NCBI RefSeq assembly: GCF_001610875.1
Contig: NZ_CP011272.1
Span: forward strand, 598,397-662,396
Length of the DNA: 64,000 nucleotides
Source of the DNA: Pirellula sp. SH-Sr6A
GTDB taxonomy: Bacteria; Planctomycetota; Planctomycetia; Pirellulales; Pirellulaceae
Reading direction: 5' to 3'
The translations under genes and the position numbers were made by a program. Below are positions 4,830 to 62,750 of this stretch, one piece after another. The first letter of the stretch is position 1. Each line of letters opens with the position of its first letter. A model generated the notes under the pieces. That model saw only the letters and a list, made by a program, of their open reading frames with translations. It did not search any database and was not told the DNA's origin.

Positions 4830-4845
4830 TCGAGTGGGAGGGGAA

Positions 4846-5420: not shown

Positions 5421-5625
5421 GAAAGCCAAGCCATTCCGAGAAACACCTCCACATGCGGTTTCCCGCAAGCACAGGAGGAAGCATGGTGTTATAATCGGTA
5501 AAAACGGTTGGTATTGGAACGGATCGAAAGGCCTTTGGCTGGAAATGTTCAAGAATCGGTCGTCTGTTCGGTTCGGACCGTTACATTTGAGGCCAACGAC
5601 CCCATCACGAAGGTTCTCGGAAACG

Positions 5626-6509: not shown

Positions 6510-6526
6510 TTGGCACGCTCGTTGCA
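6510..6526 (+). promoter_or_regulatory. sigma-54 promoter (-24/-12) before the Hsp20 gene
   Basis: TTGGCACGCTCGTTGCA matches the sigma-54 consensus TTGGCACG-N4-TTGCA at every fixed position, with the invariant GG (6512-6513) and GC (6524-6525) ten bases apart. A start near 6537 would leave a leader of about 90 bases before the Hsp20 ATG at 6627. No CIRCE element is seen. The activator is unknown; two NtrC-type activators are encoded elsewhere in the window. Confidence 0.75.
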
Positions 6527-6626
6527 TGAGCAGGGGTCTCGTCGGTCTTGACTGCCACTCCCTGACATGCGGGGGCGTCAAGAGTTCCGGTATGTAGTCC
6601 ATCCGTCTAACGAGGAGAAGCAAGTC

Positions 6627-29746: not shown

Positions 29747-30196
29747 CTAAGGTTTGCCAGACTTCCCGGTGGAGAGTTGGCTGGCGATCCACTCCTCCAG
29801 TTCGTTCCAATCGACGGGTGGTAGTTTGTTGAGATCCGGGCGAAGTGCGATCGCGTCATGAATATAAACGTGGTGGATTTCCTTTTGGGACTTCGACGTG
29901 TTCCAATGCAATAGAATTCGGACGCATGCCCCGAGCGAACCGGGAACGTCGACTTCGTACCCGCATAGAAGGGGGATATCGATCCAGCCCATTTGCCTCG
30001 CCGCGAGGGCGGGAAACTCTGCATTGAGGTCTCGAGTGACGGTAAAAATTGCGCTCGCTACGTCTTCTTGGGCAATTTCGTTTCGGCGAATCATGAGTGC
30101 CAGCAACTGACGCGTTCCTTTGAGAATCGCTTCTTTGGAGTTGCTCTCGACAGTCGTTGCCCCGCGTACGCCGCGACAAAGCTTGCCCCCGTCCAT
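29747..30196 (-). CDS. aroH: chorismate mutase, AroH type
   Basis: Converts chorismate to prephenate for phenylalanine and tyrosine synthesis in the cytoplasm. The 149-residue protein follows the monofunctional AroH fold: [15 protein letters not shown] near the start, then [33 protein letters not shown], and C-V-R-I-L-L-H-W-N. The ATG at 30196 fits the family N-terminus, with AAGGA 7 bases before it. It is divergent from the NtrC-type regulator at 30286, with only about 90 bp between the two start codons. Confidence 0.92.
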
Positions 30197-30285
30197 CCGT
30201 TTGTCCTTTTCAAATCCCTGCAATTGACGAAAATTCAATCTCGTCAAAGTACAACCTTTCAGTCGCCCTGCAAAGTCAACTTGCC

Positions 30286-31761
30286 ATGCAAATCGACGAA
30301 ACTACGCAATCCGGTCCGAACGAATCCGGAACGCTCGCCGAACTCGATCCCAAGTCCTTCTCGATCCTGGTGGTCGACAATGATCCTGCGCTCGCCCAAG
30401 CCATGTTCGAGAGCTTGGAAAAGACAGGCTATCGATGCACCGTCGCGACGAGCGGCCCCGAGGGGAAGCGGCATCTCGAACAAAACACCTTCGATGTCAT
30501 CATCACCGATTTGATGATGAACGACTTTGACGGCATGCAGGTGCTGGCCATGGCCCGACAACTGCTTCCCGAGAGCCAAGTCATCATGGTTACGGGGCAC
30601 GCGACCGTTTCCAAAGCGGTGGAGGCGATGCAACTGGGTGCTTTCAATTTCCTGGAAAAACCAATCACCCCGAATCGACTTCGAGCGATCGTGGCGAAAG
30701 CGATCGAAGCGGTACAGCTCAAACAAACGAACGTGGAGCTCCGGCGGCGCCTGGATGAGAAATTCGGCTTCGAAGGGATCGTCTACGCCGGCCCGCAAAT
30801 GCAGCAACTCATCGATCGATTGAAGCGAATTGCCCCCACTGACGCCACGGTGCTGATCACCGGGGAAAGCGGTACGGGGAAAGAATTGATCGCCCGCGCG
30901 ATCCATCAAAATAGTCCTCGTAAAGGGAAGCGCATGGTCGCATTGAATGTGCGCGCCGTCTCCGAAAACTTGGTCGAGAGCGAAATGTTCGGTCACGTTC
31001 GTGGATCGTTTACCGACGCGGTGACCGATCGCGAAGGAGCCTTTCAATACGCCGACGGCGGTACGTTGTTTCTCGATGAAGTAGGTGATATGCCGATGAG
31101 CACGCAGATCAAACTGCTGCGTGTGCTCGAAGAGCATCAAATCACGCGCGTCGGAGATAACAAACCGATCAAGGTCAACGTGCGATTGATTTCTGCAACC
31201 AACCGGCCCCTCGAGGCGATGATCGAAGAGGGGCAATTCCGCAATGATCTTTTCTATCGTCTAAAAGTAGTCACAGTGCATCTGCCTCCACTGCGAGATC
31301 GGCGTGACGACATCATCCCACTCATGGATCACTTCCGAAAGACATTCGTTCGTCGGCACAATCACGCGCCATGCAACTTCACGCCCGCAGTGACGAAAAA
31401 ATTCTTTGCGTATGCCTGGCCGGGAAACATTCGTCAGCTACGCAACTTTGTCGAAACCATGGTTGTCCTCGATACCGACGGAAAACTCGACATCGACGAC
31501 TTGCCTCCCGAGTTGATGGACGACAGTGATTCTTCGCTCAATACGCTAGGCGCGACGAACACGATCGAAATGCCTAACATGCCGCTGGCGATTGGTAATT
31601 CGGAGTTGGTGGGGAAGACGATGGATGAAATCGAACAATGGGCCATCGAAGAAACGCTGAAAATCACTGCAGGTAACCGAGAAGAGGCAGCCAAAATCCT
31701 CGGTATCGGCGCTCGCACCCTTTACCGCAAGCTCGACAAGTATCGAGAAGAAAGCCAATAA
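30286..31761 (+). CDS. NtrC-type response regulator with altered GAFTGA loop
   Basis: A 491-residue three-domain regulator. The receiver domain (about 25-140) has D31-N-D33 and the phosphate acceptor D75. The AAA+ domain (about 165-405) has Walker A G-E-S-G-T-G-K-E (193-200) and Walker B G-T-L-F-L-D-E. A Fis-type helix-turn-helix lies at the end ([16 protein letters not shown]). The loop that normally contacts sigma-54, GAFTGA, reads G-S-F-T-D-A (240-245), so sigma-54 activation is uncertain. The ATG at 30286 is chosen because the receiver domain starts soon after; a longer frame overlaps the divergent aroH start. No kinase is adjacent. The stop overlaps the next gene's ATG (TAATG). Confidence 0.9.
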
Positions 31762-50162: not shown

Positions 50163-51848
50163 CTAACGGTTTGCTGGGATATCAAACGTTGCGGACTGGG
50201 CTTCTTGGACCATCGCAATGGGAGCTGGCTCCGATCGACCGAAGGCTTGTTTGCCAGGTGCCGAGTGGATCTGGATTGGAACCGATTCCGTGGTTTGCGT
50301 TGTGTCGGTATCGATCATTGGATCCTCCAACGATTCCAGTTCGTCGACGACGAAGTCTCCGGGACGACCACCACCCCCGAGCGCCTGATAGGCTTTGATA
50401 ACCGCTCCGAGTTGCTTCTGCTTTGTATTGATCAATACCAATCGCGTTTCCATCATGTCCCGCTGAGCCAGCAGGACTTCGATGTATTCCCCCCGTGCAT
50501 TCTGGAAGAGTTTGGTTGCATTGTCGACCGACGATTCCAACGACTGCAGTTGCTGGGTCTTGACCTCGAGGCTTCGCGTATAGTTCTCGACCAAGGAGAG
50601 TTGATTAATGACTTCGATGTGGGCATTGAGAACGGTCTGTTGGTACTCGTAGACCGCTTGCAACTGGCGAGCGTTCGCATTGAGATAGTCTGCTTTGATC
50701 GCGGAGCGGTTGATGAGAGGGGCGACAAGTCCACCGGCTGCGTTGTAGATCAGCGATTCGGGACTTGAGAAGAGATACTTGGTGTTGAACGCTTCGTAAC
50801 CCACACCCGCCGATAGGATGAGTGAGGGGAAGAATTGAGCGCGGGCAACGCGGACATCGAGCCCCGAGGCAGCGACTTCCCTTTCTGCCTGACGGATATC
50901 CGATCGGTTGAGCAGTTGCTGAGATGGAAATCCGACTCCGATCGCAGGCAGGTAGAGGGAAAGGAATTCAACACTGGGGCGATCGATCTTTTGCGGGAAC
51001 CGACCAGCCAAGTAATTGATTCTATTCTCCGTCTCCGTGATCTCCTGTTGGATGATCAGCTTCTCGCTTTGATTCTTTTGCACTTCCGCCTGAAAGCGTT
51101 GGACGGCAAGCTCTGTACCTCGCGCCGCATCCTTCAGGGCTTTGGCGGTATCCAAGCTTTGTTGTTGGATGGCGATCGTTCGATCGAGTGTTTCGAGTCG
51201 ATTGTCGAGAGCGAGCAATTCGTAGTAGTTTTCGGCAACTTCCGCCACGACGCGAGTGACCACATAGTTTCGCCCGGCTTGCGTTCCCAGGAATCGCAGG
51301 GCCTGAGCATCGCGGGCATTGCGCAGCCTGCGCCAGATGTCGATCTCCCAAGTAACATCGGCGGCAATCAAGAAATTGGGGAGAGGCTCGGGAAAACCTT
51401 TCCCAGGGGCTGCTTGGAGCTGGTCCTCCACAGCACCGTCGCGTGTGAAGCGGCTTGATTTCTCGATGCCAGCGGAGGTTCCGATCGAAGCAAAGGGGAA
51501 CAGCAGGCCTCGCCTGGCTCGATATTCATTGTTGGCGATGCGGATGTCCTGAGCGAGAATCTTAAGCTCTTGGTTGCCCGCGAGCGAATCGGCGATCAAT
51601 TGATGCAGGGTGGGGTCATTGAAAAATTCCCGCCAACCCAAGCATGCGGAGTTTTGATCGCTCACCATTCCTTGAGCTGGATCGTTATTGCGGTCGAAGG
51701 TCTGTGGCAGGGGACGCATCGATTCGGGCCGGCAGATTTCGGGAATCTTGCACCCGGGAATCAATGTCGTTCCCGCAATCAATGCAGCGAAGGCGTTTCG
51801 CTTAATTCGTCCGTTCCAAGATTTCGAATAACGGCTCATCATGTTCAT
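50163..51848 (-). CDS. TolC/NodT-family outer-membrane efflux lipoprotein
   Basis: Outer-membrane channel of a tripartite RND pump, 561 residues. A signal segment ends in L-I-P-G-C, a lipobox, as in NodT-type factors. Two long helical repeats follow (I-R-I-A-N-N-E-Y-R-A-R-R-G-L-L-F-P, A-E-V-A-E-N-Y-Y-E-L-L-A-L, then R-S-D-I-R-Q-A-E-R-E-V-A-A-S-G, V-A-R-A-Q-F-F-P-S-L). The last 70 residues are Gln/Thr/Pro-rich, beyond the usual end. The start ATG lies inside the RND gene (47-bp overlap), which implies translational coupling. It is the last gene of the adaptor-pump-channel operon. Confidence 0.92.
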   Translation of the reverse strand: MNMMSRYSKSWNGRIKRNAFAALIAGTTLIPGCKIPEICRPESMRPLPQTFDRNNDPAQGMVSDQNSACLGWREFFNDPTLHQLIADSLAGNQELKILAQDIRIANNEYRARRGLLFPFASIGTSAGIEKSSRFTRDGAVEDQLQAAPGKGFPEPLPNFLIAADVTWEIDIWRRLRNARDAQALRFLGTQAGRNYVVTRVVAEVAENYYELLALDNRLETLDRTIAIQQQSLDTAKALKDAARGTELAVQRFQAEVQKNQSEKLIIQQEITETENRINYLAGRFPQKIDRPSVEFLSLYLPAIGVGFPSQQLLNRSDIRQAEREVAASGLDVRVARAQFFPSLILSAGVGYEAFNTKYLFSSPESLIYNAAGGLVAPLINRSAIKADYLNANARQLQAVYEYQQTVLNAHIEVINQLSLVENYTRSLEVKTQQLQSLESSVDNATKLFQNARGEYIEVLLAQRDMMETRLVLINTKQKQLGAVIKAYQALGGGGRPGDFVVDELESLEDPMIDTDTTQTTESVPIQIHSAPGKQAFGRSEPAPIAMVQEAQSATFDIPANR

Positions 51849-54800
51849 CCTTGATTAACTTCCGCCCCTCCGCCATCTTAGCGAAGAGGTAATAAAGTCC
51901 CGGAATCACAAGGACTCCGATGACCGTACCTAAAAGCATTCCCCCCACCGCGGTGGTACCGATGGTTCGGTTTCCAATTGCACCCGGGCCGGTCGCCCTC
52001 ACCAGAGGTACCAACCCTGCGATGAATGCGAACGACGTCATCAAGATAGGGCGAAAGCGAAGTTTCCCCCCTTCGATGGCGGCGTCCTTGATAGGAACTC
52101 CTTCTCGGTTTCGCTGGATCGCAAACTCGATAATCAAGATTGCATTCTTACCTAGCAAACCTACCAACATCACCAATCCAATTTGGCAATAGACATCATT
52201 CGCCAGTCCCATCGCTTGCAAAAACAAGAACGAGCCGAAGATCCCAACAGGTAGGGAAACAATGACCGCCAATGGGAGGATAAAGCTCTCGTATTGCCCC
52301 ACCAAAACCATGTACACGAAGACCACAACGATGATAAATATGTACACCGCTGTGTTTCCGCTCTTGGCTTCATCGTAGGACAAGCCTTGCCAGTCGATTG
52401 CGTAACCGCGAGGAAGGGTTTCCGCCGCGACTTCTCGAATGGCAGCAATAGCTTGCCCGCTACTGTAGCCGGCCGCCGGAGAACCTTGAATCGGTGCCGA
52501 CGGATAAAGGTTGTATCGACTGATTTCATTGAGGCCTTGCTTCTTTTTCAGTCGCATAAAGGCCGAGTAGGGAACCATTTCCCCTTGGTCGTTCTTCACA
52601 AACATGTTTGCGAAGTCTTCGGGGTAGCGTCGAAACTCTGGCGCCGCTTGCACATACACCTTGTAGAATTGGCCGAAGCGAACGAATCCTTGCTCCCACG
52701 TGCTGCCGATCACGATCGACAGGTTATTCATTGCCTCCCCGATCGATACCCCTTTTTGCATCGCGATATCATTGTCGATGATGATCTCGTACTGGGGATA
52801 GTTTCCTGCGAAGAAGGTAAAGAGACCTTTTAATTCCTTTCTCTTCGCGAGGGCCGCCATGAATTTGTCGGTGACCCCCCCGAGAGCTTCATAGTCTCCC
52901 GAATTCGTCTTATCGAGCAGATTCAAGGCAAATCCCCCCGCTGCACCAAACCCTGGAACGGCCGGTGGTTCGAAGAACTCCAATTTGATATTAGAAATCT
53001 CTCGTCCTTTTTCCTCCAAAGCCTCAATGATCTGTTTCGAAGTTCTCTTTCGGTCCGCCCACGACTTCAAGTTGATAATACACGTACCCGCGTTCGATCC
53101 ACGACCTTCCGTGAGCACTTCATAGCCTGCAAGCGAGGAGACCGACGAGATTTCATCCAACTCTTCGCAGATTGCTTGTAGTTCCCTCGCTTTGGAATTG
53201 GTGTACTCCAAGGTCGAGCCGGGAGGCGTTTGGATCACCCCATAAATGATGCCTTGATCCTCCAGCGGGATGAACCCGGATGGAAGAACATGATTCACCA
53301 TATAAATACCTATGGAAAAGGCGGTGATCACCAGCATGGTCAAGGTCCGAAACGTGACGATTCTCCGGAGAATCGCAGCATAGGCATTGGTGATGCCTTC
53401 GATGATCTGATTGATTCCCGCGATGAAGATGGCCATCGGACCGAGAGCAATTTTCTCAGCGGGGCGTCCGCGTGACATAACAGATCGAATCGTCAACATC
53501 ATCCAGATTGTGGTCGCGATCCCAATCAATTGGATTCGGATAGGTGTGAGCATAAACATGTCATGCGTCGCATGGATGATCGACTCCAGACTAAGGAATC
53601 GGACCATGCCGTAACCACATGCCGCACTCAAGAGCAGGATCCAGATCCAGCGGGCGACGAATCCAGCTGTTCCACCTATACCGCCCAGGAGCTTATCCAT
53701 GTAGACGAAGAATCGAGGGATAAGTCCCTTGGGGGCATCCCCATGTCCATGCGGCTTGAGAATGATTGCGCACAACACAGGCGTCAGCGTCAACGCTACG
53801 ACCCCCGAGAGCACGATCGACATCGCCATGGTCAAACCGAACTGCCGATAGAAGACTCCGACCGGGCCTGTCATGAAGGTGACTGGAATAAAAACGGCGG
53901 TCATGACCAACGTGATCGCAATAATGGCGCCGCTGATTTCATGAACAACCTCTTTAGTGGCAGCGTAGGGAGAAAGATGCTTCTCATGCATCTTTGCGTG
54001 GACCGCCTCGACGACCACGATCGCATCATCCACCACGACCCCGATCGCTAGCACCAAGGCGAAGAGCGTGATGAGATTAATGGACATCCCGAACATCAGC
54101 AGAAAGAAGAAGGTACCGATCAAGGAGACGGGAACCGCAAGGGTAGGAATCAGCGTGCTTCGGAAGTCACCTAAGAAGAGGAACACTACCAGCGACACGA
54201 GAATAAAGGCTTCGACCAAGGTGTGAAGAACTTTTTCGATCGATGCCTCAAGGAATTTTGAAACGTCATAGCTGACTTCAAAGTCCATACCAGGTGGGAA
54301 CGAATCCTTTTTGATTTGCTCGAGCCGCTCCTTTACCTTTTCAATAACGACAGTTGCGTTAGAGCCTGGTGTCTGTTTCAGCACAATCGCCGCCGAAGGA
54401 TGCCCATCGATATCCGAGTACAAATCGTAGAATGATGACCCCAGCGAAACGGTGGCGACATCTTTGATCCGAACGATCTCTCCATTTGGATTGGCACGCA
54501 AGATGATGTTCTCGTATTGCTCCGGCTTGTTGTACCGGCCAACCCATGTCAGAACGTATTCAACAGTTTGCGAAGTTCGACCCGTGGCTTGTCCAAGCCG
54601 GCCGGGTGAGCCGATCATACTCTGCTCTGCGATGGCCTTCATGACGTCATCCGACGACAGGCTATAGGCCCGCATACGATCTAAGTTCAATTCCACGCGC
54701 ATGGCGTAGGCACGGTTACCTAAGATGCTCGCACGGCCCACCCCTTGAATCCGTTTGATCTCGGGCAGAATGTTGACGGTCGCGTAGTTATAGAGAAAGT

Positions 54801-55254
54801 TTTGATCGACACCGGGCTCGGTACTGTAAACGTTGACATACATGAGCATACTCGACATGTTTTGCATGACGATGATGCCTTCGCGGTCGACGATGGGTGG
54901 CAAATTGTTACGAACCGCTTGAATCCGATTGTTCACATTCAAGACGGCGACGTTGGGATCGGTGCCCGGTTCAAAGATGACCTGAATCGTCCCCTCCCCT
55001 GCACTCGTCGCGTCACCGATCATGTAACGCATGTCCTGGACACCATTGATGGCTTGTTCCAGGATCACCATCACCGAGTCAACCAGCACGTTGGCGCTGG
55101 CACCAGGATAGGAAACGGATACGACGACGCTAGGTGGTGCTACCGATGGGAATTGTGAAATCGGTAGCGATTGGATGGAAAGTCCGCCCATAAACAGGAT
55201 GAGCAGAGAAATAACAATAGCCAACGCAGGGCGGTGGAGAAATCGTACAAACAT
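51802..55254 (-). CDS. RND efflux pump, HAE1 (AcrB-like) type
   Basis: Inner-membrane proton-driven efflux transporter, 1150 residues against about 1050 for AcrB. It starts M-F-V-R-F-L-H-R-P and has the HAE1 signature around G-V-V-V-D-D-A-I-V-V-V-E, with the paired Asp used in proton relay, so it is the hydrophobic/amphiphile type rather than the heavy-metal type. Two duplicated halves of six membrane segments and large periplasmic loops are evident. An extra stretch of about 100 residues between segments 6 and 7 contains two more hydrophobic segments (W-I-W-I-L-L-L-S-A-A-C-G, then I-G-I-A-T-T-I-W-M-M-L). Gaps to its neighbours are 12 bp and an overlap, so it is operonic. Confidence 0.94.
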   Translation of the reverse strand: MFVRFLHRPALAIVISLLILFMGGLSIQSLPISQFPSVAPPSVVVSVSYPGASANVLVDSVMVILEQAINGVQDMRYMIGDATSAGEGTIQVIFEPGTDPNVAVLNVNNRIQAVRNNLPPIVDREGIIVMQNMSSMLMYVNVYSTEPGVDQNFLYNYATVNILPEIKRIQGVGRASILGNRAYAMRVELNLDRMRAYSLSSDDVMKAIAEQSMIGSPGRLGQATGRTSQTVEYVLTWVGRYNKPEQYENIILRANPNGEIVRIKDVATVSLGSSFYDLYSDIDGHPSAAIVLKQTPGSNATVVIEKVKERLEQIKKDSFPPGMDFEVSYDVSKFLEASIEKVLHTLVEAFILVSLVVFLFLGDFRSTLIPTLAVPVSLIGTFFFLLMFGMSINLITLFALVLAIGVVVDDAIVVVEAVHAKMHEKHLSPYAATKEVVHEISGAIIAITLVMTAVFIPVTFMTGPVGVFYRQFGLTMAMSIVLSGVVALTLTPVLCAIILKPHGHGDAPKGLIPRFFVYMDKLLGGIGGTAGFVARWIWILLLSAACGYGMVRFLSLESIIHATHDMFMLTPIRIQLIGIATTIWMMLTIRSVMSRGRPAEKIALGPMAIFIAGINQIIEGITNAYAAILRRIVTFRTLTMLVITAFSIGIYMVNHVLPSGFIPLEDQGIIYGVIQTPPGSTLEYTNSKARELQAICEELDEISSVSSLAGYEVLTEGRGSNAGTCIINLKSWADRKRTSKQIIEALEEKGREISNIKLEFFEPPAVPGFGAAGGFALNLLDKTNSGDYEALGGVTDKFMAALAKRKELKGLFTFFAGNYPQYEIIIDNDIAMQKGVSIGEAMNNLSIVIGSTWEQGFVRFGQFYKVYVQAAPEFRRYPEDFANMFVKNDQGEMVPYSAFMRLKKKQGLNEISRYNLYPSAPIQGSPAAGYSSGQAIAAIREVAAETLPRGYAIDWQGLSYDEAKSGNTAVYIFIIVVVFVYMVLVGQYESFILPLAVIVSLPVGIFGSFLFLQAMGLANDVYCQIGLVMLVGLLGKNAILIIEFAIQRNREGVPIKDAAIEGGKLRFRPILMTSFAFIAGLVPLVRATGPGAIGNRTIGTTAVGGMLLGTVIGVLVIPGLYYLFAKMAEGRKLIKDEHDEPLFEILERTN

Positions 55255-55266
55255 GTTCGCTCTCTC

Positions 55267-56586
55267 CTATTCTGCTCTGTTCTTGAGGTTACGAAGCACT
55301 TCGCTGGGGTCGCGGAGCTCGTATTCCACCTTGTCCCCGACCTTCACATCTCGAACCCCTTCGAGAACGATCTTCGTCCCGCTGTCGATCCCACTCTCGA
55401 TGACGAAGATATCTTCCAATTCGGTTTTGATCGTAATTTGCTTTTGCTGGACGACGTTGTTTTCGTCGATCACATAGACATAGCGATTCGCGAGAATTTC
55501 AAAGGTCGCACGCTGAGGGATCACCGTCGCATTGAGCAATTGGCGATGGATAAGAACATTCCCCGTTTGGCCGTGACGCAAAAGTCCTTCTGGATTGGGA
55601 AAGTCCGCCCGAAACGCGATGTTCCCGGTCTCGTTATTGAAGTCCGCCTCGATAGCTCCAATTTTTCCTGGCTGATTGAATTTGGAGTGATTTGCCAACA
55701 CGAGCTCGACGGACATTTCAGGATCGTGCTGAGCAACTTGCGCGCGGTATTCCAAATAGCGTGCTTCAGGGACGTTGAAGTAGACCCACATGGTGCTGTT
55801 GTCGGAAAGGGTAGTAAGAACGTCCCCTTCGGATACCAAACTACCTTGCTGGTTTCTCAAGCGATCGACGATCCCTGGAAACGACGCACGGATGATCGTG
55901 AAGTTCAACTCGGCTTGTGCCAGCTTCACTTGAGCTTGAGCCTTCGCAAGCTTGGCCTCCGCCAACGCGACTTCTTGAGCCGATACCACCTTCTGCTCGA
56001 AAAGCCGTTTGGCGTTGTCGAATTCGATCTGCACCAGCTTGGCTTCCGCAATATCTGTTTCCAACTTCGCCTGGAACACAGGAGGGAGGATCCGAAAGAG
56101 CACATCTCCCTGTTGAACCTGTTGCCCCTCTCGGATGAAGATCTCCTCGAGATAGCCACGCTCCAACGCTCGAACTTCGATATGTCGGCACGAGTGGATC
56201 TGGCAGACATAGGATTGCGTGCTAACAACATCGCGCGATACTGAAGTGGTCGCTACGATTTTGTGGGTGTGATGACCATGCGCGGCCTCCCCGTGTTCCG
56301 CTGCCCCGTGCCCGGCTGCCCCGTGGGAAGAAGGGCCGTGTTCCGATGCCCCCCCAGTCGCCGAAGCATGCCCCTTCGAAGGGTGTTCATGATCGTCGTC
56401 GTCGTCATCGTCGTCATCATCGTCATCATCGTCATCGTCGTCATCATCGTCATCGTCGTCTCGATGTTCACCTTGTTTCGCGTGGCGACCGGAATCGCCA
56501 GCGAGCTGGTTTTTAACCGCGTCGCAGCCGGGGAGTGCAATGAAGACAAGGAACAGAAGCAGGAGACGTTTCAAGGATCGTCGCAT
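55267..56586 (-). CDS. RND adaptor lipoprotein with poly-Asp and His-rich segment
   Basis: Periplasmic membrane-fusion protein linking pump and channel, 439 residues. The lipobox A-L-P-G-C has C21. Residues 43-65 are 23 consecutive Asp. Then comes a His-rich stretch to about 108 (H-E-H, G-H-H-T-H-K and several G-A-A-G-H/E-H-G units). The HlyD core follows: lipoyl half (V-R-A-L-E-R-G-Y-L-E-E-I-F-I-R-E-G-Q-Q-V-Q-Q-G-D-V-L), a helical hairpin (about 165-235), the second lipoyl half (A-S-F-P-G-I-V-D-R-L), and the beta-barrel and membrane-proximal parts. The acidic/His segment is not part of the family fold and could bind metal ions. First gene of the pump operon; a sigma-54-like promoter lies about 100 bp before it. 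Confidence 0.93.
   Translation of the reverse strand: MRRSLKRLLLLFLVFIALPGCDAVKNQLAGDSGRHAKQGEHRDDDDDDDDDDDDDDDDDDDDDDDHEHPSKGHASATGGASEHGPSSHGAAGHGAAEHGEAAHGHHTHKIVATTSVSRDVVSTQSYVCQIHSCRHIEVRALERGYLEEIFIREGQQVQQGDVLFRILPPVFQAKLETDIAEAKLVQIEFDNAKRLFEQKVVSAQEVALAEAKLAKAQAQVKLAQAELNFTIIRASFPGIVDRLRNQQGSLVSEGDVLTTLSDNSTMWVYFNVPEARYLEYRAQVAQHDPEMSVELVLANHSKFNQPGKIGAIEADFNNETGNIAFRADFPNPEGLLRHGQTGNVLIHRQLLNATVIPQRATFEILANRYVYVIDENNVVQQKQITIKTELEDIFVIESGIDSGTKIVLEGVRDVKVGDKVEYELRDPSEVLRNLKNRAE
56392..56460 (-). repeat. GAY trinucleotide tract encoding 23 Asp
   Basis: A run of 23 GAC/GAT codons inside the adaptor gene. GAC and GAT are mixed, so it is not a perfect microsatellite, but the tract could still change length by slippage or unequal recombination while keeping frame. 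Confidence 0.9.
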
Positions 56587-56681
56587 GGTAACGGAGCGAT
56601 TGGTTTTCTAGGTGCAGCGGGACCAGCGAGTCGATGGAATACTGGAGACACCCCGGTCTGCAGGTGATGCAAACTCTGGTA

Positions 56682-56698
56682 TGCAACCTTCGGACCAA
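56682..56698 (-). promoter_or_regulatory. sigma-54-like promoter before the RND operon
   Basis: On the minus strand TTGGTCCGAAGGTTGCA matches TTGGCACG-N4-TTGCA except for two bases of the -24 box. The invariant GG and GC are ten bases apart. A start near 56671 would leave a leader of about 85 bases before the adaptor ATG at 56586. Confidence 0.55.
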
Positions 56699-56894
56699 TA
56701 GCAGGCTCCCAGGGCTCGCAGCTCGATTTGCATCGCGACGCCAGATGGATCCATCGCGATGAATTGCTGTTATTCCCTGCAATTCTTGCCATTTCGGGAT
56801 GCCATTCGTTTCGGTCTCCCAAGCATCGCAGTCGATGAATTCATCCTCTTTTTTGACAAATCCCGTGAACATCGAAAAAAACCTTCAAGGCTCA

Positions 56895-56920
56895 TGCAAA
56901 GAATTGCACTTCCCGTGCAA
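56895..56920. promoter_or_regulatory. TGCA half-site cluster upstream of the RND promoter
   Basis: TGCA occurs at 56895, 56905 and 56916. The first two form TGCAAAGAATTGCA, an inverted repeat. The second and third lie within TTGCAC-TTCCC-GTGCAA, a second perfect inverted repeat. The steps of 10 and 11 bp put the half-sites on one face of the helix. The site is about 200 bp before the sigma-54-like promoter, a usual distance for an activator-binding site. Confidence 0.45.
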
Positions 56921-56941
56921 ACAATGGCAGGGCAAGCGATC

Positions 56942-58291
56942 TTAGTGACCTTGGTCCACGGGAAGTTGGATGGTGAAAGTCGTGCCGGTCGTTTCGGTTT
57001 GAAAATCGATTCGACCGTCGTGCTGTCGAACGATCTTTTCACAGATGGCGAGCCCCATTCCGATACCGTCCTTGCGCGTGGTGAAATAGGGATTGAAGAT
57101 CTGGTTTCGGATCTCAGGGGGGATTCCGTTTCCAGTGTCGCTAATTTGGATTTCCAACATTTCCAAGTCGCAGGCTAGATGGAATCGGAGGGTCCCCCCA
57201 TCGGGCATCGCCGCCACGGCGTTCAAGGCTAGATTCAGCAAAACCTGTTCCAGCTTTGCACCATCTGCGATGATCTGTGTCGTGGAATTCTCATCGCATT
57301 GAAATTCGATCGTGACCTTCTTGTTCTCCGCATCGGGGCGCAGAAGACGGATTAGCTTTTCAATCAGATTAGCGACATCGACAGGCGCGTGACGAATTTC
57401 GTCGATGGATGCGTAGTTTCGGAATCCGTCGAGCACCTCGCTAATTCGCTTCACCTCCGTATTCAAAATTTCGAGGGTCTCGTTGATATCCGCCGTTCGA
57501 AATTCTTGAGGCAGAGACTCGCAAAGGAGTTGAATATGAAGTGAAAGGGCGTTGAGGGGATTCTTGATTTCGTGCTGGAGACCGGCTGCCAAGGAACCGA
57601 GACCGACATAGCGTTCCATTCGCCTCAATCGCTCTTCCATAAATGCCTTTTCCGTGACATCGCGCACGTGGATCACCATCCCAACTTCCTCCTTTTGTCG
57701 GTTGCGAAGGATTGTACAGCCGGCCCGGTACGTTTTTCGATGGCCTTGGCGAAGGATCTGATAGTCTCGGTCTCGAATGGGTTGATGATGTTCAAGAAGC
57801 TCACGGCAGATGGATGCTAGCAAGGCGTGTTCCGAACCGAGTCCTTCAATCGTCTGGATGAGCCCCGTGTAGCTGCTTCCCAGCAATTCCTCACCGCGAA
57901 TATTCAAGCTAGTGATGCGTCCCTCCATGTCCGTGGTCATGACTCCCGCATCCATACTGGCCAAGATATCCGTTGACAAAACCTTTACGTCTTGAAGATT
58001 GCGTTCGCTGCTGAAATAACCGCGGAGGACCAAGGAAAAGGCGATTCCGGCCGCGATGACATTCAAGACCAAGAGAAAGGAAAGGCTTCGTTGTAATCCA
58101 AGTTCACTGGATAATTCCCCTGCCACCTCGAGATCGCTTCCTTGCAAATGACTGACGAGTCGAGCCACAATCGCTTGCTCATGTCGAACATTGAGGAGCA
58201 CCCAAGCGGTGACGATCAGCGCAAACAAGCTTAAAAGCCCGAGCACAAACGCAAACGCTTTAACGCTCCGGCTGCTGTTGGTCTCAAACAT
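56942..58291 (-). CDS. membrane histidine kinase with PAS domain
   Basis: Sensor kinase of a two-component system, 449 residues. Two membrane segments (about 12-34 and 70-90) flank a short periplasmic loop of about 35 residues, too small for a large sensor domain. A PAS domain lies at about 105-215. The dimerisation/phosphoacceptor helix has H240-E-I-K-N-P-L, and the ATPase domain has N-L-A-L-N-A-V-A-A, D-T-G-N-G-I-P and a G-I-G-M-G-L-A-I G2 box. This NtrB-like layout usually pairs with an NtrC-type regulator, encoded upstream on the same strand at 59048-60451. The efflux operon follows 355 bp later. The signal is unknown. Confidence 0.93.
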   Translation of the reverse strand: MFETNSSRSVKAFAFVLGLLSLFALIVTAWVLLNVRHEQAIVARLVSHLQGSDLEVAGELSSELGLQRSLSFLLVLNVIAAGIAFSLVLRGYFSSERNLQDVKVLSTDILASMDAGVMTTDMEGRITSLNIRGEELLGSSYTGLIQTIEGLGSEHALLASICRELLEHHQPIRDRDYQILRQGHRKTYRAGCTILRNRQKEEVGMVIHVRDVTEKAFMEERLRRMERYVGLGSLAAGLQHEIKNPLNALSLHIQLLCESLPQEFRTADINETLEILNTEVKRISEVLDGFRNYASIDEIRHAPVDVANLIEKLIRLLRPDAENKKVTIEFQCDENSTTQIIADGAKLEQVLLNLALNAVAAMPDGGTLRFHLACDLEMLEIQISDTGNGIPPEIRNQIFNPYFTTRKDGIGMGLAICEKIVRQHDGRIDFQTETTGTTFTIQLPVDQGH

Positions 58292-58438
58292 AAGCAGTCA
58301 AAAGGCTGGTCGGGGAATGAGGGAATAGTTGCGAAGCGGATCCCACGGGGCGATCCGTGGGCCCGACGAATCATACCTGTACGGACAGCAAGCTGCTCGG
58401 GCCCATACAAATTTCAAGGGGAGCTATAGGAAAACGAT

Positions 58439-58464
58439 TGCAGAACCTGCAGTCGTTCGTTGCA
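58439..58464. promoter_or_regulatory. TGCA half-site cluster between kinase and small gene
   Basis: TGCA occurs at 58439, 58448 and 58461 (TGCAGAACCTGCA and a third copy). It lies about 120-145 bp before the sigma-54-like promoter of the small gene and about 150 bp before the kinase start. Spacing (9 and 13) is less regular than at the other clusters. Nothing else is seen in the 433 bp between the kinase start and the small gene. Confidence 0.3.
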
Positions 58465-58581
58465 GACACGGCGTCGCCAGAGGACGACAGGTACCTTTCT
58501 TGCGCTGGTGGCATGTCCCGCGCGATTGCAATTTCCAGCGAAGGAGCGAGTTCCTGACGTTCTTCCTGTTTCTACTCCATG

Positions 58582-58597
58582 TGGCACGCCACCTGCT
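58582..58597 (+). promoter_or_regulatory. sigma-54-like promoter before the small secreted gene
   Basis: TGGCACGCCACCTGCT keeps the -24 box TGGCACG exactly and has CTGCT in place of TTGCA, with GG (58583-58584) and GC (58595-58596) ten bases apart. A start near 58608 would leave about 115 bases before the ATG at 58725. Confidence 0.5.
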
Positions 58598-58724
58598 TCT
58601 CAGTACAAATCCCACGGAGATCGGAATAGGCGATTCGATTTGAGTTCGACTTGCCCGTCGGTCTTCAGAATGGATGGTCGGCGGGACGGTCGGTACGATT
58701 TATTCGATGAACAGGGAGAGCAAT

Positions 58725-58934
58725 ATGTTTAAGTTTCGCGCTTCGATCCTAATTTCCTTTTTAACCGCAATGCTAGGTTCGGAATGGACGCAACCAAGCG
58801 TTACTTTGCGAAGCCAAAGTGCACGGCAGGATACCACGGCAGGTCCATTGCAGTGCAGCGAAGAAGAATGTGAAAACCTGAGAATCAAGCTCGACGCGCA
58901 GCGTCAGATGGGACACGAGCTTCGAGAAGGCTAG
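58725..58934 (+). CDS. small secreted protein in the two-component locus
   Basis: A 69-residue protein. The ATG at 58725 has GGGAGAG just before it. A signal peptide (M-F-K-F-R-A-S-I-L-I-S-F-L-T-A-M-L-G) is followed by a short mature part with two Cys (C-S-E-E-E-C) and a charged helix (L-R-I-K-L-D-A-Q-R-Q). It ends at an amber codon (58932-58934), after which the same frame continues for 38 codons through a set of 15-bp repeats. It lies between the regulator and kinase genes on the opposite strand and has its own sigma-54-like promoter. Family not recognised. It may report on, or be induced by, the signal sensed by the kinase. Confidence 0.55.
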   Translation: MFKFRASILISFLTAMLGSEWTQPSVTLRSQSARQDTTAGPLQCSEEECENLRIKLDAQRQMGHELREG

Positions 58935-59051
58935 TGCGGAACCGAAACCCTGGTTGTGCATGGTAGTATTGAAGACGGCAACGCTGAGAATGGTAGCGCT
59001 GAGAACGGCAGCGCTATCAACAGTAGCGACAGGCATGGTAGCATCTTTTAG
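58935..59051 (+). other. in-frame extension after amber stop, 15-bp repeats
   Basis: Directly after the TAG of the small gene the frame continues for 38 codons to a TAG at 59049-59051. From 58956 six 15-bp units encode a five-residue repeat (V-H-G-S-I, E-D-G-N-A, E-N-G-S-A, E-N-G-S-A, I-N-S-S-D, R-H-G-S-I). Several differences between units are at third codon positions (gaa/gag, ggc/ggt, aat/aac), as expected if the peptide was or is translated. Either the stop is a recent nonsense change or reading through it is used. The end overlaps the regulator's stop region by four bases. Confidence 0.4.
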
Positions 59052-60451
59052 TGCATACCATGTCGGCTCATCTTGTAATGCAACGTGCGAACGCTGACAC
59101 CTAGCAGCTTCGCGGTATGCTCGCGGTGCATTTGGCATGCTTCCAAAGCGGCTTGGATCGTGACCTTTTCGCATTCATCCAATGCTTCCGCGAGCGACGT
59201 GGGTTGCGTGGGATTAGGACGAGAGGCTTTGCGCAAGTCGGAGGGCAAGTCCGGTACATCGATCACGTTGCCGGCACCGACGATGACCATCCGTTCGATC
59301 ACGTTGCGAAGTTGGCGCACGTTCCCTGGCCACGGGGACGACGTGAGGATCTGCATGGCCTCGGAGGAGATCGTCTTGAGATCCTTCCTGTGACGGCTGC
59401 AGAAATGCTCGAGAAAATGTTGCACGAGCAGTGGGATGTCTTCTCGTCGCTGTCGCAACGGAGGGACTTCGATCGGAATGATATTCAATCGATAAAAGAG
59501 ATCCTCGCGAAACGTTCCGTCATCGATGAGGTCTTGTACGGAGCGATTGGTAGCAGAGATGATGCGCGCGTCGGACTGCAACCGGTTCTCACCGCCAATG
59601 CGATTGAACTCCCCTGTCTCCAGCACGCGGAGCAAATCGACTTGACTCTTCGGTGACATCTCGGTGACTTCGTCGAGAAACAAAGTCCCCCCGATCGCTT
59701 GCTCGAAACAGCCCGGTTTTTGACGGATGGCCCCGCTGAAGGCCCCTTTTTCATGGCCGAACAACTCACTCTCCAGAAGTGTTTCAGGGAGTGCTCCGAG
59801 ATTCACAGCGATGAAAGGACCGTTGCTTCGATCGCTGAGATCATGGAGCGCACGCGCGATAAGCTCCTTGCCTGTTCCACTTTCACCATGGATCATGACC
59901 GTCGCTTCGGTTGCCGCAACCTGACGAATCTGTCGAAAAACCTCCTCCATGGCCGCCCCACCCGCGACGATTCGAGATATTTCGCCCGACTCCGCCAATT
60001 GGTGGCGCAGCAGCGCGTTCTCGGTAAGGAGTTCAAAGTGCAATCGCGCTTTGCGGACTTGCTGACGAACCAAATTCAAATCGACGGGCTTCAGAATGAA
60101 GTCGAAAGCCCCCGATCGCATGGCGTCCACTGCGGTTTCGACCGTTCCGTGGGCAGTGATCACAATGACAGCCGTCTGCGGTCGCAAATGAATGATTTTT
60201 CGGAGCAGCTCGAGCCCTGTCATCTCACAGTTCAGCCGGACGTCGACGATCACGAGAGCATGTTCGTGCGTTTGGAATTTCTCCAGTGCCTCGATCGCGC
60301 TCCCTGCTGTGTCCACCACGTCGGCTTCCGTCGCTAACCCCTTGGCGAACCCTGAACGGATGTTCGGTTCATCATCCACAATCAATACGCCGAATCGTCC
60401 CGCTCGTTCCATCCTCGTCCCAACCTTTTCCAGGCTTGTTTCGCTCTGCAT
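59048..60451 (-). CDS. NtrC-type sigma-54-dependent response regulator
   Basis: A 467-residue activator. The receiver domain has D26-D27 and phosphoacceptor D70 (V-I-V-D-V-R-L). The AAA+ domain has Walker A G-E-S-G-T-G-K-E (189-196), the sigma-54-contacting loop G-A-F-S-G-A (236-241, near the GAFTGA consensus) and G-T-L-F-L-D-E. A Fis-type helix-turn-helix closes the protein (T-A-K-L-L-G-V-S-V-R-T-L-H-Y-K-M). The ATG at 60451 is used; 60412 is a possible alternative, nearer to the receiver domain. The intact loop, the nearby kinase and the sigma-54-like promoters point to control of the efflux operon and small gene. Autoregulation is possible from a weaker promoter at 60503-60518. Confidence 0.93.
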   Translation of the reverse strand: MQSETSLEKVGTRMERAGRFGVLIVDDEPNIRSGFAKGLATEADVVDTAGSAIEALEKFQTHEHALVIVDVRLNCEMTGLELLRKIIHLRPQTAVIVITAHGTVETAVDAMRSGAFDFILKPVDLNLVRQQVRKARLHFELLTENALLRHQLAESGEISRIVAGGAAMEEVFRQIRQVAATEATVMIHGESGTGKELIARALHDLSDRSNGPFIAVNLGALPETLLESELFGHEKGAFSGAIRQKPGCFEQAIGGTLFLDEVTEMSPKSQVDLLRVLETGEFNRIGGENRLQSDARIISATNRSVQDLIDDGTFREDLFYRLNIIPIEVPPLRQRREDIPLLVQHFLEHFCSRHRKDLKTISSEAMQILTSSPWPGNVRQLRNVIERMVIVGAGNVIDVPDLPSDLRKASRPNPTQPTSLAEALDECEKVTIQAALEACQMHREHTAKLLGVSVRTLHYKMSRHGMH

Positions 60452-60502
60452 TTCCTCACCCGCCGCTGTTCGCGAGGTTCATCGACAAAACGAAACTCTA
60501 TC

Positions 60503-60518
60503 GCATAACTCGTACCAA
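60503..60518 (-). promoter_or_regulatory. weak sigma-54-like promoter before the regulator gene
   Basis: On the minus strand TTGGTACGAGTTATGCG has GG and GC ten bases apart, a good -24 box (one mismatch to TTGGCACG) and a poor -12 box. A start near 60491 would leave about 40 bases before the regulator ATG. Confidence 0.35.
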
Positions 60519-60646
60519 TCGAATCGGGTGCGCGCCGGCCACTGTTTCTTTGCACGCACTAGGAGAAAACGCAGGAGATTCCTGAGTCTGCGCCCCGTCC
60601 AAGTGATTCCGATTTTTTCAGTTGCCCCATTCTAACCGGGCGGCAC

Positions 60647-60687
60647 TGCAAGGAATTGCACGTGCATGCTGATTTCTGCATCCTGCA
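60647..60687. promoter_or_regulatory. TGCA half-site cluster upstream of the regulator gene
   Basis: TGCA occurs at 60647, 60657, 60663, 60677 and 60684. The first pair forms TGCAAGGAATTGCA, which differs by one base from TGCAAAGAATTGCA before the efflux operon. It is about 130-180 bp before the weak sigma-54-like promoter and 45 bp before the end of the PAP2-type gene's neighbour boundary at 60704. Confidence 0.45.
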
Positions 60688-60703
60688 GCGGGGAAATAAG
60701 GGG

Positions 60704-61729
60704 TCAGAAACGGATTTCAGCTTGGACCCCTGAACCTTCCCTCGTGATGAGCGGCGAGAACTTCCATCGAGCATTGGGGTTATCGGTTGCGTCGATGGCA
60801 CTCGCCGCCAGGTAGGCTACCCACCACCCTAAAGCGACTTGCGATGGATAATGCGCGTTGTCGTTCACTCGCGAAAGCGGTTCGATGGCCGAACCTGCAT
60901 AGAAGAGTGTTTTGTAAGCTGGATTATCGGTCAATTTCGCCGCGGTGATAAATGGGAGTGAACCCATGAACGAGTGACCACTGACGCCGTTGTTGTCGTG
61001 AAAGGGATGCCACTCCGAGTTTTCCACACTTTCGGTTGGCCTCGATCCACCTGTAATCTGTTGCAACGCAACCAAGGGAGCCGCCCCAACCGCAAATCCT
61101 CGTAACGATCGTTCTCCCCAGCGACCTCCCCATGCTGCCATCGCGTTGTTGGGAAACACCTCACCGAGCCCCCATGCCGATGCAAAGACAGGAAGCGTCA
61201 CCATACCATTCCCAAGCTCCTTGCTTGCATGGAGTGACTCAAACCACTCGTCGGACGTCGCCCCGCGAACGCTGCTTTGAAAATGCCGCTGGATTCCTTC
61301 GTCCATCGATGTATTCGCCATCGCCCCACCCACTACAAATCCGCTCCCCAGCAGTGTTAGAGACTCGGGCGAATAAAAATTCTTTTGATCGCTCCAAAGC
61401 CGCACCCAAAGGGACTCTGAAGGAGTCGGGCTCGAAGTCCCCTCCACTTCCCGCTCCAGCCAACCCTCCTCAAAGTCCTCTCTCCACTCCCACGGGTGCA
61501 CCAGAGATACAGAGGAGATCAAAGCGACTCTTTGGACAGGCAAACGCTCGCCGCGATGTGTCTGAAACTCGGCACTCACGCGATTCAATTCATTTCCGCG
61601 CGCGACTCCCTGTGTTTCTCGGCCGCTGGGTTGAAACGGGAGTGGAGCTCTACATCCCGTCAAAAACAATAGTGAAATCAAGACACTCGCAACAGATCGG
61701 AGAGGGGACAGACAACAGGAGGGGTTCAT
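60704..61729 (-). CDS. PAP2-superfamily lipoprotein
   Basis: A 341-residue lipoprotein (lipobox in F-L-T-G-C, near residue 25) of the type 2 phosphatidic-acid-phosphatase superfamily, which dephosphorylates lipid or undecaprenyl phosphates. Motif 1 is partly kept (T-G-G-S-R-P-T-E), motif 2 is V-S-G-H-S-F, and motif 3 is S-R-V-N-D-N-A-H-Y-P-S-Q, with Gln where the last Asp is expected. A weakened or altered active site is therefore possible. The ATG at 61729 starts the lipoprotein signal; AGGAGG lies just before it. It is upstream of the regulator gene on the same strand. An envelope-lipid role fits its neighbour, a membrane methyltransferase. Confidence 0.82.
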   Translation of the reverse strand: MNPSCCLSPLRSVASVLISLLFLTGCRAPLPFQPSGRETQGVARGNELNRVSAEFQTHRGERLPVQRVALISSVSLVHPWEWREDFEEGWLEREVEGTSSPTPSESLWVRLWSDQKNFYSPESLTLLGSGFVVGGAMANTSMDEGIQRHFQSSVRGATSDEWFESLHASKELGNGMVTLPVFASAWGLGEVFPNNAMAAWGGRWGERSLRGFAVGAAPLVALQQITGGSRPTESVENSEWHPFHDNNGVSGHSFMGSLPFITAAKLTDNPAYKTLFYAGSAIEPLSRVNDNAHYPSQVALGWWVAYLAASAIDATDNPNARWKFSPLITREGSGVQAEIRF

Positions 61730-61878: not shown

Positions 61879-62015
61879 ATTATTCGCTTACAGATTGGTC
61901 GTATGTTAATTCTTTTTCGTCCCCCTCGCATGCGATTGACCAAGCAGCATCTTCATCGCTATGTTGCATCGTCGATCTAGGATCCACAGAGTGTTTGAAA
62001 GGTTGGGAATTCAGG

Positions 62016-62750
62016 ATGAATGAGCTTCTTAAGGAACAAGGCAACTTTCTCTTTCGCTGGCGGAGTTATCTTCCTGTCATCATGATGATTCCGCTGACGA
62101 TCGCCGTCATGAATATGGCTTGGCCGTTGGGAAGTCACGCTTACCATGAAGTCGCCGAAGCCGTTTGTATGCTCGTATCGCTATCAGGTTTGGCGGTGCG
62201 AATCATCACGATAGGACATACTCCTCGAGGGACTTCGGGCCGCAACACCACACAGCAATCGGCTTGGCAACTCAATACCACCGGAATCTATTCGGTGGTG
62301 AGGCATCCACTCTATCTTGGCAACTTCCTGATTGGCCTGGGGCCCATGATGCTGCCGCTTATTTGGTGGTTACCCATTCTCTATATCCTCGCGTTCACGG
62401 TTTATTACGAGCGGATAATGATTGCGGAGGAGGCATTTTTAACGGAGCAATTCGGAGCGCGATACCGGGACTGGGCGTCGCGAACCCCCGCATTCCTTCC
62501 TCGCCTCTGGGGCTGGCAACGTCCTGCGTTGCCCTTTTCGCTTCGAAACGTGTTGAAACGCGAATACACCGCATTGGGGCAGATTTGTATCGGTTTCGTT
62601 ATTGTCGAAATCGCTGAGCATCTCGTGATTGAGCATCGATTTGTTATGGAGCCCATCTGGATTGCGATCGCGGCAGTCGGGGTATCGCAATATGTAGCGC
62701 TGCGCCTTTTGAAGCGTCATACAACTTGGCTCGACGTCGCAGGACGATAG
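62016..62750 (+). CDS. ICMT/LmtA-like integral membrane methyltransferase
   Basis: A 244-residue membrane protein with about five or six hydrophobic segments and the isoprenylcysteine-carboxyl-methyltransferase family end: G-R-N-T-T-Q-Q, then N-T-T-G-I-Y-S-V-V-R-H-P-L-Y-L-G-N-F (SAM-binding), Y-Y-E-R-I-M-I-A-E-E-A-F-L and F-G-A-R-Y-R-D-W. The pattern resembles LmtA, which methylates lipid A 1-phosphate in Leptospira, so an envelope lipid is a reasonable target. AGGA lies very close to the chosen ATG, and the start at 61995 is an alternative. It is divergent from the PAP2-type gene and convergent with ribD, 26 bp apart. Confidence 0.82.
   Translation: MNELLKEQGNFLFRWRSYLPVIMMIPLTIAVMNMAWPLGSHAYHEVAEAVCMLVSLSGLAVRIITIGHTPRGTSGRNTTQQSAWQLNTTGIYSVVRHPLYLGNFLIGLGPMMLPLIWWLPILYILAFTVYYERIMIAEEAFLTEQFGARYRDWASRTPAFLPRLWGWQRPALPFSLRNVLKREYTALGQICIGFVIVEIAEHLVIEHRFVMEPIWIAIAAVGVSQYVALRLLKRHTTWLDVAGR

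What the first reader, a model, noticed from the sequence alone, without database searches (positions are those of the whole stretch)
56586..61729. Candidate sigma-54-controlled envelope-stress module
An NtrB-like kinase, an NtrC-type regulator with an intact loop, an efflux operon, a small secreted protein, a PAP2-type lipoprotein and a membrane methyltransferase are clustered. Sigma-54-like promoters stand before the pump (56682), the small gene (58582) and weakly before the regulator (60503). The layout suggests one regulon for a membrane-damaging or metal signal. I know of no described system with this set.
Basis: inference. Interest (0 to 1): 0.7.

Follow-up and report, generated by a model that had tools for sequence, protein, structure and literature searches.

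The report
Carbon-uptake switch wired to efflux pump
A two-gene sensor switch in a planctomycete bacterium, whose relatives often sit beside genes of families that take up carbon dioxide and bicarbonate, has a 35-letter DNA site placed before an efflux pump and is predicted to turn that pump on, probably when dissolved inorganic carbon runs short.

Summary
The genes and the three sigma-54-like sites exist. As bare consensus matches the sites are not above chance (65 found, 58.9 expected), but all three recur at matching positions in near relatives. The kinase-regulator pair belongs to an ortholog group spread through Planctomycetia (84 nonredundant loci). Of these, 37 have DabA, SulP or carbonic anhydrase nearby (46 with porin or CLC added) and 14 have this RND pump. 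I found a shared operator, TGCA-N6-TGCA-N7-TGCA-N6-TGCA. With up to one mismatch it is in 51 of 63 genomes that have the pair and 7 of 50 that lack it. In the window's own 6.53-Mb genome it occurs once, between kinase and pump. Elsewhere it stands before dabA, SulP, carbonic anhydrase and porin genes, and before some orthologous pumps far from the regulator. The metal or envelope signal is not supported; inorganic-carbon (or pH) shortage fits better, but nothing was measured. This species' own dab genes carry no operator, so the switch looks rewired to the pump. I found no description of it in the open papers searched.

The parts
59048..60451 (-). NtrC-type response regulator (REC, sigma-54 AAA+, Fis HTH; loop GAFSGA)
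   Evidence: Pfam PF00072, PF00158, PF02954; orthologs
56942..58291 (-). sensor kinase (N-terminal hydrophobic segments by eye, PAS, HisKA, HATPase)
   Evidence: a kinase of this family (over 150 bits) lies within 1.5 kb of the regulator in 66 of 84 loci
55267..56586 (-). RND adaptor (MFP) with Asp- and His-rich N-terminal stretch
   Evidence: TIGR01730 202 bits, cut-off 94.9
51802..55254 (-). RND permease, HAE1 type, 1150 aa
   Evidence: TIGR00915 1009 bits, cut-off 940
50163..51848 (-). outer-membrane efflux factor (NodT type)
   Evidence: TIGR01845 223 bits, cut-off 210
58725..58934 (+). small protein of 69 aa with hydrophobic N-terminus (probably secreted), antiparallel between regulator and kinase
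   Evidence: family of 14 aligned sequences, no Pfam
56895..56929 (.). predicted operator TGCA-N6-TGCA-N7-TGCA-N6-(G)GCA, one mismatch; the only copy with up to one mismatch in the genome
   Evidence: one-mismatch copy at the same place in L083, variant spacing in L082
56682..56697 (-). sigma-54-like promoter of the pump operon (TGGTCCGAAGGTTGCA)
   Evidence: 11.4 bits; conserved block in three species
58582..58597 (+). sigma-54-like promoter of the small gene (TGGCACGCCACCTGCT)
   Evidence: 16.3 bits, second best in the window; sites at matching distance in L082, L083, L085 and before an unlinked homolog in L187
60502..60517 (-). weak sigma-54-like promoter of the regulator (TGGTACGAGTTATGCG)
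   Evidence: 9.5 bits; similar site at a like distance in L082 and L083
60647..60660 (.). TGCA-N6-TGCA half-operator upstream of the regulator
   Evidence: N6 site also in L082
58439..58464 (.). degenerate TGCA cluster upstream of the small gene
   Evidence: same spacing (9 and 13) in L082
61856..61878 (.). TGCA triple between PAP2 and methyltransferase; role doubtful
   Evidence: not kept in L082
60704..61729 (-). PAP2-family lipoprotein; doubtful member of the regulon
   Evidence: PF01569 33 bits, cut-off 27
61995..62750 (+). LmtA-like membrane methyltransferase; doubtful member of the regulon
   Evidence: TIGR04571 237 bits, below cut-off 325; a 42% homolog lies between dabB2 and SulP in L111

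Best explanation
The kinase and regulator are the local copy of a two-component system found across Planctomycetia that is predicted to bind an operator of four TGCA half-sites and, with sigma-54, to switch on this efflux pump, a small probably secreted protein and the regulator itself, likely in answer to a shortage of dissolved inorganic carbon or the high pH that goes with it. Shown by sequence: the orthology, the recurrent neighbours (DabA-DabB, SulP, carbonic anhydrase, porin, this pump), the 35-bp operator, its strong bias to genomes with the pair, and sigma-54-like sites about 120-200 bp downstream of the TGCA sites in the window. Inferred: that this regulator binds that operator, that binding activates, and that the kinase reads carbon or pH. 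Proposed sequence of events: the kinase is activated, phosphorylates the regulator, the regulator assembles on the TGCA array, reaches the sigma-54 polymerase by DNA looping through its loop (GAFSGA here), and the promoters fire; the site before the regulator would give positive feedback. In many relatives the predicted output is carbon import; in this lineage the operator is kept before the pump and missing before the genome's own dab genes.
For: Neighbours (over 100 bits): 37 of 84 nonredundant loci have DabA, SulP or carbonic anhydrase, 46 of 84 with porin O/P or CLC added, 60 of 84 with the pump adaptor added; of 38 loci of other sigma-54 activators from the same scan, none has the carbon genes and 1 has a distant RND (families named). 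Promoters before dabA: 21 of 29 score 13 or more on the coding strand, 0 of 29 on the other, 3.1% of 1500 random stretches. Operator core TGCA-N6-TGCA: before 28 of 32 dabA and 12 of 12 porin genes, 0 of 30 before the operon-internal dabB1, 4.8% of 2520 random stretches. Four-part operator with up to 1 mismatch: 51 of 63 genomes with the pair (102 sites; reversed control 4) against 7 of 50 without (7 sites; control 9). In this genome one site, between kinase and pump. Away from the regulator locus: 8 of 12 exact sites read lie by DabA, SulP, carbonic anhydrase or porin genes, and 7 of 21 one-mismatch sites by DabA, SulP, porin or the orthologous pump (three pumps). Operator (up to 2 mismatches) or N6 site before the pump: 11 of 14 linked, 12 of 23 unlinked in genomes with the pair, 0 of 7 in genomes without; N6 in 5.6% of random 560-base stretches of these loci. 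Pump linkage needs at least 3 changes on the regulator tree. Blocks kept in the kinase-pump spacer of three species include the operator and the sigma-54 site.
Against: No expression or binding data. The operator was derived from the regulator loci, so part of the 51 of 63 is by construction; the off-locus sites are the independent test. Own dab genes have no N6 operator upstream, so the carbon link in this species rests on orthologs. The kinase's sensing part shows no domain that names a signal. 24 of 84 loci have none of the listed neighbours in the DNA held, 12 of 58 even with 8 kb on both sides. 12 of 63 genomes with the pair lack the operator at one mismatch. 3 of 14 linked pumps and 11 of 23 unlinked ones in genomes with the pair show no operator, and several of the 12 positive ones are close relatives of each other. 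Two of the three pumps found through off-locus operators have no good sigma-54 site between operator and gene. The pump family also occurs in 7 of 50 genomes without the pair.
Confidence: 0.62

Rival explanations
1. The regulator and operator are real, but the signal is pH, ion or membrane-energy stress; carbon transporters, CLC channel, NuoL-like proteins, aquaporin and the proton-driven pump are all outputs of that.
For: CLC genes neighbour 5 of 84 loci, and NuoL-like, CitMHS, amino-acid permease and aquaporin genes stand by exact operator sites; DabA and RND pumps both use ion gradients (recalled; for DAB2 also passages of PMC13144422).
Against: The most frequent outputs (DabA, SulP, carbonic anhydrase) share carbon dioxide and bicarbonate as likely substrate.
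Confidence: 0.25
2. One reading: envelope-stress or metal-responsive module with pump, PAP2 lipoprotein, methyltransferase and small protein.
For: Pump, PAP2 and an LmtA-like lipid methyltransferase are together here and in L082; the adaptor has a His/Asp-rich stretch; one paper says planctomycete regulators of this class correspond to ZraR, a zinc regulator (PMC12316311, passages).
Against: Not ZraR by NCBIfam (375 bits, cut-off 760) and not a heavy-metal RND; PAP2 and methyltransferase are rare at orthologous loci (3 of 84 each).
Confidence: 0.1
3. The operator belongs to another DNA-binding protein that merely travels with this pair.
For: Binding was never measured; TGCA half-sites are also typical of other Fis-type activators such as NtrC (recalled).
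Against: Presence of the operator follows presence of the pair (51 of 63 against 7 of 50), and it stands in 51 of 84 regulator loci.
Confidence: 0.08

Closest known systems
AtoSC / ZraSR / NtrBC two-component systems
   Same: Domain order of kinase and sigma-54 activator; operators upstream of -24/-12 promoters (recalled for the known systems).
   Different: Scores fall below the NCBIfam cut-offs of AtoC (463 of 714), NtrC (427 of 559), ZraR (375 of 760) and AtoS (258 of 646); neighbours are carbon uptake or an RND pump; operator spacing differs from NtrC's (recalled).
DAB inorganic-carbon transporters (DabA-DabB, MpsAB)
   Same: DabA (PF10070) and Proton_antipo_M partners are the most frequent neighbours of the orthologs.
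   Different: Not adjacent in the window; regulation by a sigma-54 activator was not found described.
HAE1 RND multidrug pumps (AcrB type)
   Same: TIGR00915 cut-off passed; adaptor and outer-membrane factor in one operon.
   Different: 1150 aa, against 1029 and 1050 positions of the two best-fitting models; predicted control by this regulator; substrate unknown.
Sigma-54 regulon predictions in planctomycetes (Studholme and Dixon 2004, seen only as a reference entry; PMC12316311, passages)
   Same: Predict activators and promoters in Planctomycetota.
   Different: In the main text of PMC12316311 the terms bicarbonate, carbonic, inorganic carbon and RND do not occur; the 2004 paper was not read.

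Membership tests
sigma-54 enhancer-binding response regulator | REC, sigma-54 AAA+ and Fis HTH domains | tested here: met
   PF00072, PF00158, PF02954 over cut-off
sigma-54 enhancer-binding response regulator | GAFTGA loop | tested here: inconclusive
   GAFSGA in the window; G[AS]F[TS]GA in 83 of 84 orthologs
sigma-54 enhancer-binding response regulator | rpoN in the genome | tested here: met
   one PF00309 match over cut-off
sigma-54 enhancer-binding response regulator | binds the operator and activates the promoter | not testable with these tools
   needs footprint and reporter
NtrC nitrogen regulator | NCBIfam equivalog cut-off | tested here: not met
   427 bits, cut-off 558.6
ZraR zinc regulator | NCBIfam equivalog cut-off | tested here: not met
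   375 bits, cut-off 760
AtoC | NCBIfam equivalog cut-off | tested here: not met
   463 bits, cut-off 714
carbon-linked planctomycete switch (defined here) | ortholog of the regulator with matching kinase nearby | tested here: met
   kinase within 1.5 kb in 66 of 84 loci
carbon-linked planctomycete switch (defined here) | four-part TGCA operator in its locus | tested here: met
   56895-56929, one mismatch
carbon-linked planctomycete switch (defined here) | carbon-uptake genes next to it or under its operator in the same genome | tested here: not met
   own dab genes lack the N6 site upstream; no other own carbon gene was tested
HAE1 RND permease | TIGR00915 cut-off | tested here: met
   1009 bits, cut-off 940
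heavy-metal RND (CusA/CzcA) | TIGR00914 cut-off | tested here: not met
   308 bits, cut-off 701
LmtA lipid A methyltransferase | TIGR04571 cut-off | tested here: not met
   237 bits, cut-off 325
PAP2 phosphatase | Pfam PF01569 cut-off | tested here: met
   33 bits, cut-off 27
PAP2 phosphatase | catalytic motifs | not tested
   looked at by eye only, against motifs recalled from memory

The most novel reading that the evidence does not exclude
Planctomycetes own a dedicated carbon-dioxide/bicarbonate switch: a sigma-54 two-component system with its own 35-bp operator that jointly commands DAB and SulP import, carbonic anhydrase, an anion porin, an aquaporin, a small secreted protein and an RND pump, making tripartite efflux part of inorganic-carbon homeostasis; in the window's lineage the switch has been reduced to the pump and the secreted protein.
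Probability: 0.4. Interest if true: 0.82.

Novelty: new variant of a known kind. Interest (0 to 1): 0.68.

Why it matters
DAB carbon transporters are reported in at least 14 bacterial phyla and also in heterotrophs (PMC13144422, passages), yet the searches here found no sigma-54 control of them. This work gives a pair of genes, an exact operator, and predicted target genes in many genomes, so the question how planctomycetes sense inorganic carbon becomes testable. The recurrent RND pump in the same predicted regulon is unexpected and asks what such a pump has to do with carbon or pH.

Tried and rejected
Bare sigma-54 consensus scan: not above chance, so conservation was used instead. PAP2 and methyltransferase as firm members: rejected for lack of a promoter and of conservation. 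Own dab genes as targets: no N6 site upstream. The first pump-upstream count with alignment starts gave 3 of 14 because the adaptor N-terminus does not align; replaced by reading-frame starts. Plasmid search with the regulator gave only relatives under 60% identity. A first neighbour scan used a wrong frame for PAP2; it was redone in frame. The small-gene promoter is misplaced by the aligner and was located by score instead.

Selections and drops: one search kept the best 80 of 298 relatives, of which 42 were used as orthologs and 38 as controls. Of 105 regulator loci, 21 were dropped as 97% duplicates. One search counted 102 operator sites but did not list all; of the off-locus ones, 32 stretches from genomes with the pair were fetched, with 3 from genomes without it (L303-L305: none of the gene families beside the site) and one own stretch (L289, no four-part site, not read further). 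The exact site in L277 was dropped from the off-locus count, because the same 35 bases stand in the regulator contig of that genome, so the two contigs probably meet there. L271 and L273 lie about 10-14 kb from their regulator and are counted as outside the locus. The exact site in L278 is 0.8 kb from dabA with a one-mismatch site in between. Spacing controls at one mismatch: 6-6-6 still found 15 of 84 loci, other spacings 0-6, other half-sites 0; at two mismatches 7-6-7 found 25, probably through shifted arrays. One eighth pump from genomes without the pair gave no adaptor hit. Structure prediction was not used. The sigma-54 matrix, the PAP2 motifs and the NtrC site are recalled.
Full report
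What is there. The window lies in a 6.53-Mb single-contig genome; the nearest regulator ortholog found, 89% identical, is from a MAG named Pirellula sp.. On the minus strand stand, in order, a response regulator (59048-60451), a sensor kinase (56942-58291) and an RND pump operon: adaptor (55267-56586), permease (51802-55254), outer-membrane factor (50163-51848). A 69-aa gene (58725-58934) runs the other way between regulator and kinase. Upstream lie a PAP2-family lipoprotein (60704-61729) and a membrane methyltransferase (61995-62750).

With up to two mismatches the sigma-54 consensus occurs 65 times in the window, 58.9 expected, so single matches prove nothing. Comparison does. In the kinase-pump spacer of three species the conserved blocks include a TGCA array and the -24/-12 site at 56682. 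The site before the small gene scores 16.3, second in the window; sites of 16.3, 16.3 and 12.2 stand 121, 104 and 130 bp before the ATG of its homologs in L082, L083 and L085, and an unlinked homolog in L187 has TGGCACAGCTCCTGCT 130 bp before its ATG. The weak site before the regulator (9.5) has counterparts of 10.2 and 13.0 in L082 and L083.

The ortholog group. The regulator shows an identity gap: most orthologs at 60-89%, other activators at about 42-47%; five of the 84 loci used lie at 46-56%. Matches at E 1e-125 or better were found in 20 of 392 genomes drawn from the phylum and 47 of 396 from the order, the own genome counted in both. After removing 97% duplicates, 84 of 105 loci remained. 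A matching kinase lies within 1.5 kb in 66. DabA is in 32, SulP in 28, the pump adaptor in 14, porin O/P in 13, beta-carbonic anhydrase in 8, CLC in 5 (over 100 bits; families by Pfam). DabA, SulP or carbonic anhydrase is in 37; 24 have none of the listed genes; of 58 loci with 8 kb or more on both sides, 46 have one. Of 38 loci of other sigma-54 activators from the same scan, from many phyla, none has any of the carbon genes and one has a distant RND. On the regulator tree the pump label needs 4 changes, at least 3 forced by starred branches (quick tree, SH-aLRT only).

The operator. De novo dyad counting upstream of dabA gave TGCAA-N4-TTGCA in 19 of 32 against 1.7% of 1680 random stretches. 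TGCA-N6-TGCA stands before 28 of 32 dabA and 12 of 12 porin genes, before 0 of 30 dabB1 and 0 of 12 outer-membrane-factor genes, which are operon-internal, and in 4.8% of 2520 random stretches from the same loci. The full form is TGCA-N6-TGCA-N7-TGCA-N6-TGCA. With up to one mismatch it is in 51 of 63 genomes with the pair (102 sites; the reversed control pattern 4) and 7 of 50 without (7 sites; control 9). Of 84 regulator loci it occurs in 51; controls with other half-sites 0, other spacings 0-15. Because the motif was derived from these loci, the sites elsewhere in the genomes are the independent test. Sigma-54 sites before dabA: 21 of 29 on the coding strand, 0 of 29 on the other.

The window's own site. 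The genome has exactly one four-part site with up to one mismatch, at window 56895-56929, about 200 bp upstream of the pump promoter; six more need two mismatches (their surroundings were not read). The bare N6 site occurs 5 times in the window (1.0 expected, 0 of 100 shuffles reach 5): 56895, 60647 (before the regulator), 61856 (between PAP2 and methyltransferase) and two elsewhere. The site at 60647 has an N6 counterpart in L082; that at 61856 has none.

Targets elsewhere. Of 12 exact sites read outside the regulator loci of genomes with the pair, 8 lie by DabA, SulP, carbonic anhydrase or porin genes; the other four lie by NuoL-like and complex-I-like genes, a CitMHS transporter, an amino-acid permease and an aquaporin. 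Of 21 one-mismatch sites read, 7 lie by DabA, SulP, porin or the orthologous pump (three pumps, permease 75-78% identical); 10 of the other 14 lie inside reading frames of 200 aa or more, as chance would put them. Reading upstream of the pump wherever it lies, an operator with up to 2 mismatches or an N6 site is present in 11 of 14 linked, 12 of 23 unlinked in genomes with the pair, 0 of 7 in genomes without it, against 5.6% of random 560-base stretches for N6; some of the 12 are close relatives. The pump family itself is in 35 of 63 genomes with the pair and 7 of 50 without.

Reading. The pair is best seen as a carbon-linked switch whose predicted regulon in several lineages includes this RND pump. 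In this genome the dab genes (two DabA places) have no N6 site upstream, so here the pump, the small protein and the regulator are the likely outputs. The signal is inferred from the company the orthologs keep; pH or membrane energy would fit much of it too. A report on S. aureus says that bicarbonate depletion alters the cell wall (PMC11394868, abstract), which would let carbon shortage look like envelope stress; this is analogy only.

Small protein. Thirteen proteins in the 5.8-billion set match the profile (one of them the window's own), none with Pfam domains; the four that bear an organism name are from planctomycetes. The alignment shows a hydrophobic N-terminus and a C-terminal RI..(D/E)AR...G..L pattern. 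I infer secretion; function unknown, perhaps feedback on the kinase.

Literature. Nine searches showed no paper in the listings on sigma-54 control of DAB transporters or on this pair. Passages of PMC12316311 were read: it reports ZraR-like regulators among predicted sigma-54 targets in Planctomycetota, and bicarbonate, carbonic and RND do not occur in its main text. Passages of PMC2754498, PMC3162934 and PMC13144422 were read. Subscription papers are mostly not covered, among them Studholme and Dixon 2004.

Noticed in passing
6511-6526 (+): A sigma-54 site with every consensus base (TGGCACGCTCGTTGCA, 19.1 bits, best in the window) stands about 40 bp before a reading frame at 6567-7100 that looks like a small heat-shock protein (by eye).
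   Followed up: no
30157-31761 (+): A second NtrC-type regulator whose loop reads GSFTDA instead of GAFTGA, so it may not activate sigma-54 (read).
   Followed up: no
56392-56460 (adaptor N-terminus): Run of 23 aspartates followed by a His-rich stretch in the RND adaptor; the adaptor of L286 has the His-rich part without the aspartates (read from the DNA).
   Followed up: partly
L112:7609-9690: SulP transporter with a C-terminal P-II domain next to an orthologous regulator and a carbonic anhydrase.
   Followed up: no
L280:5926-8332: Exact operator before an aquaporin (MIP) and a sulfatase.
   Followed up: partly
L278:6552-7400: A 282-aa open frame with a stretch 65% like the regulator but with only the HTH recognised, beside two operators and dabA; perhaps a truncated second copy.
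   Followed up: no
4834-6432: Open frame whose first part holds near-identical repeats (RRGAPRR.ARKV...), probably repeated DNA rather than protein (by eye).
   Followed up: no
L111:1434-2195: A 42% homolog of the window's methyltransferase sits between SulP and dabB2 in a dab operon.
   Followed up: partly
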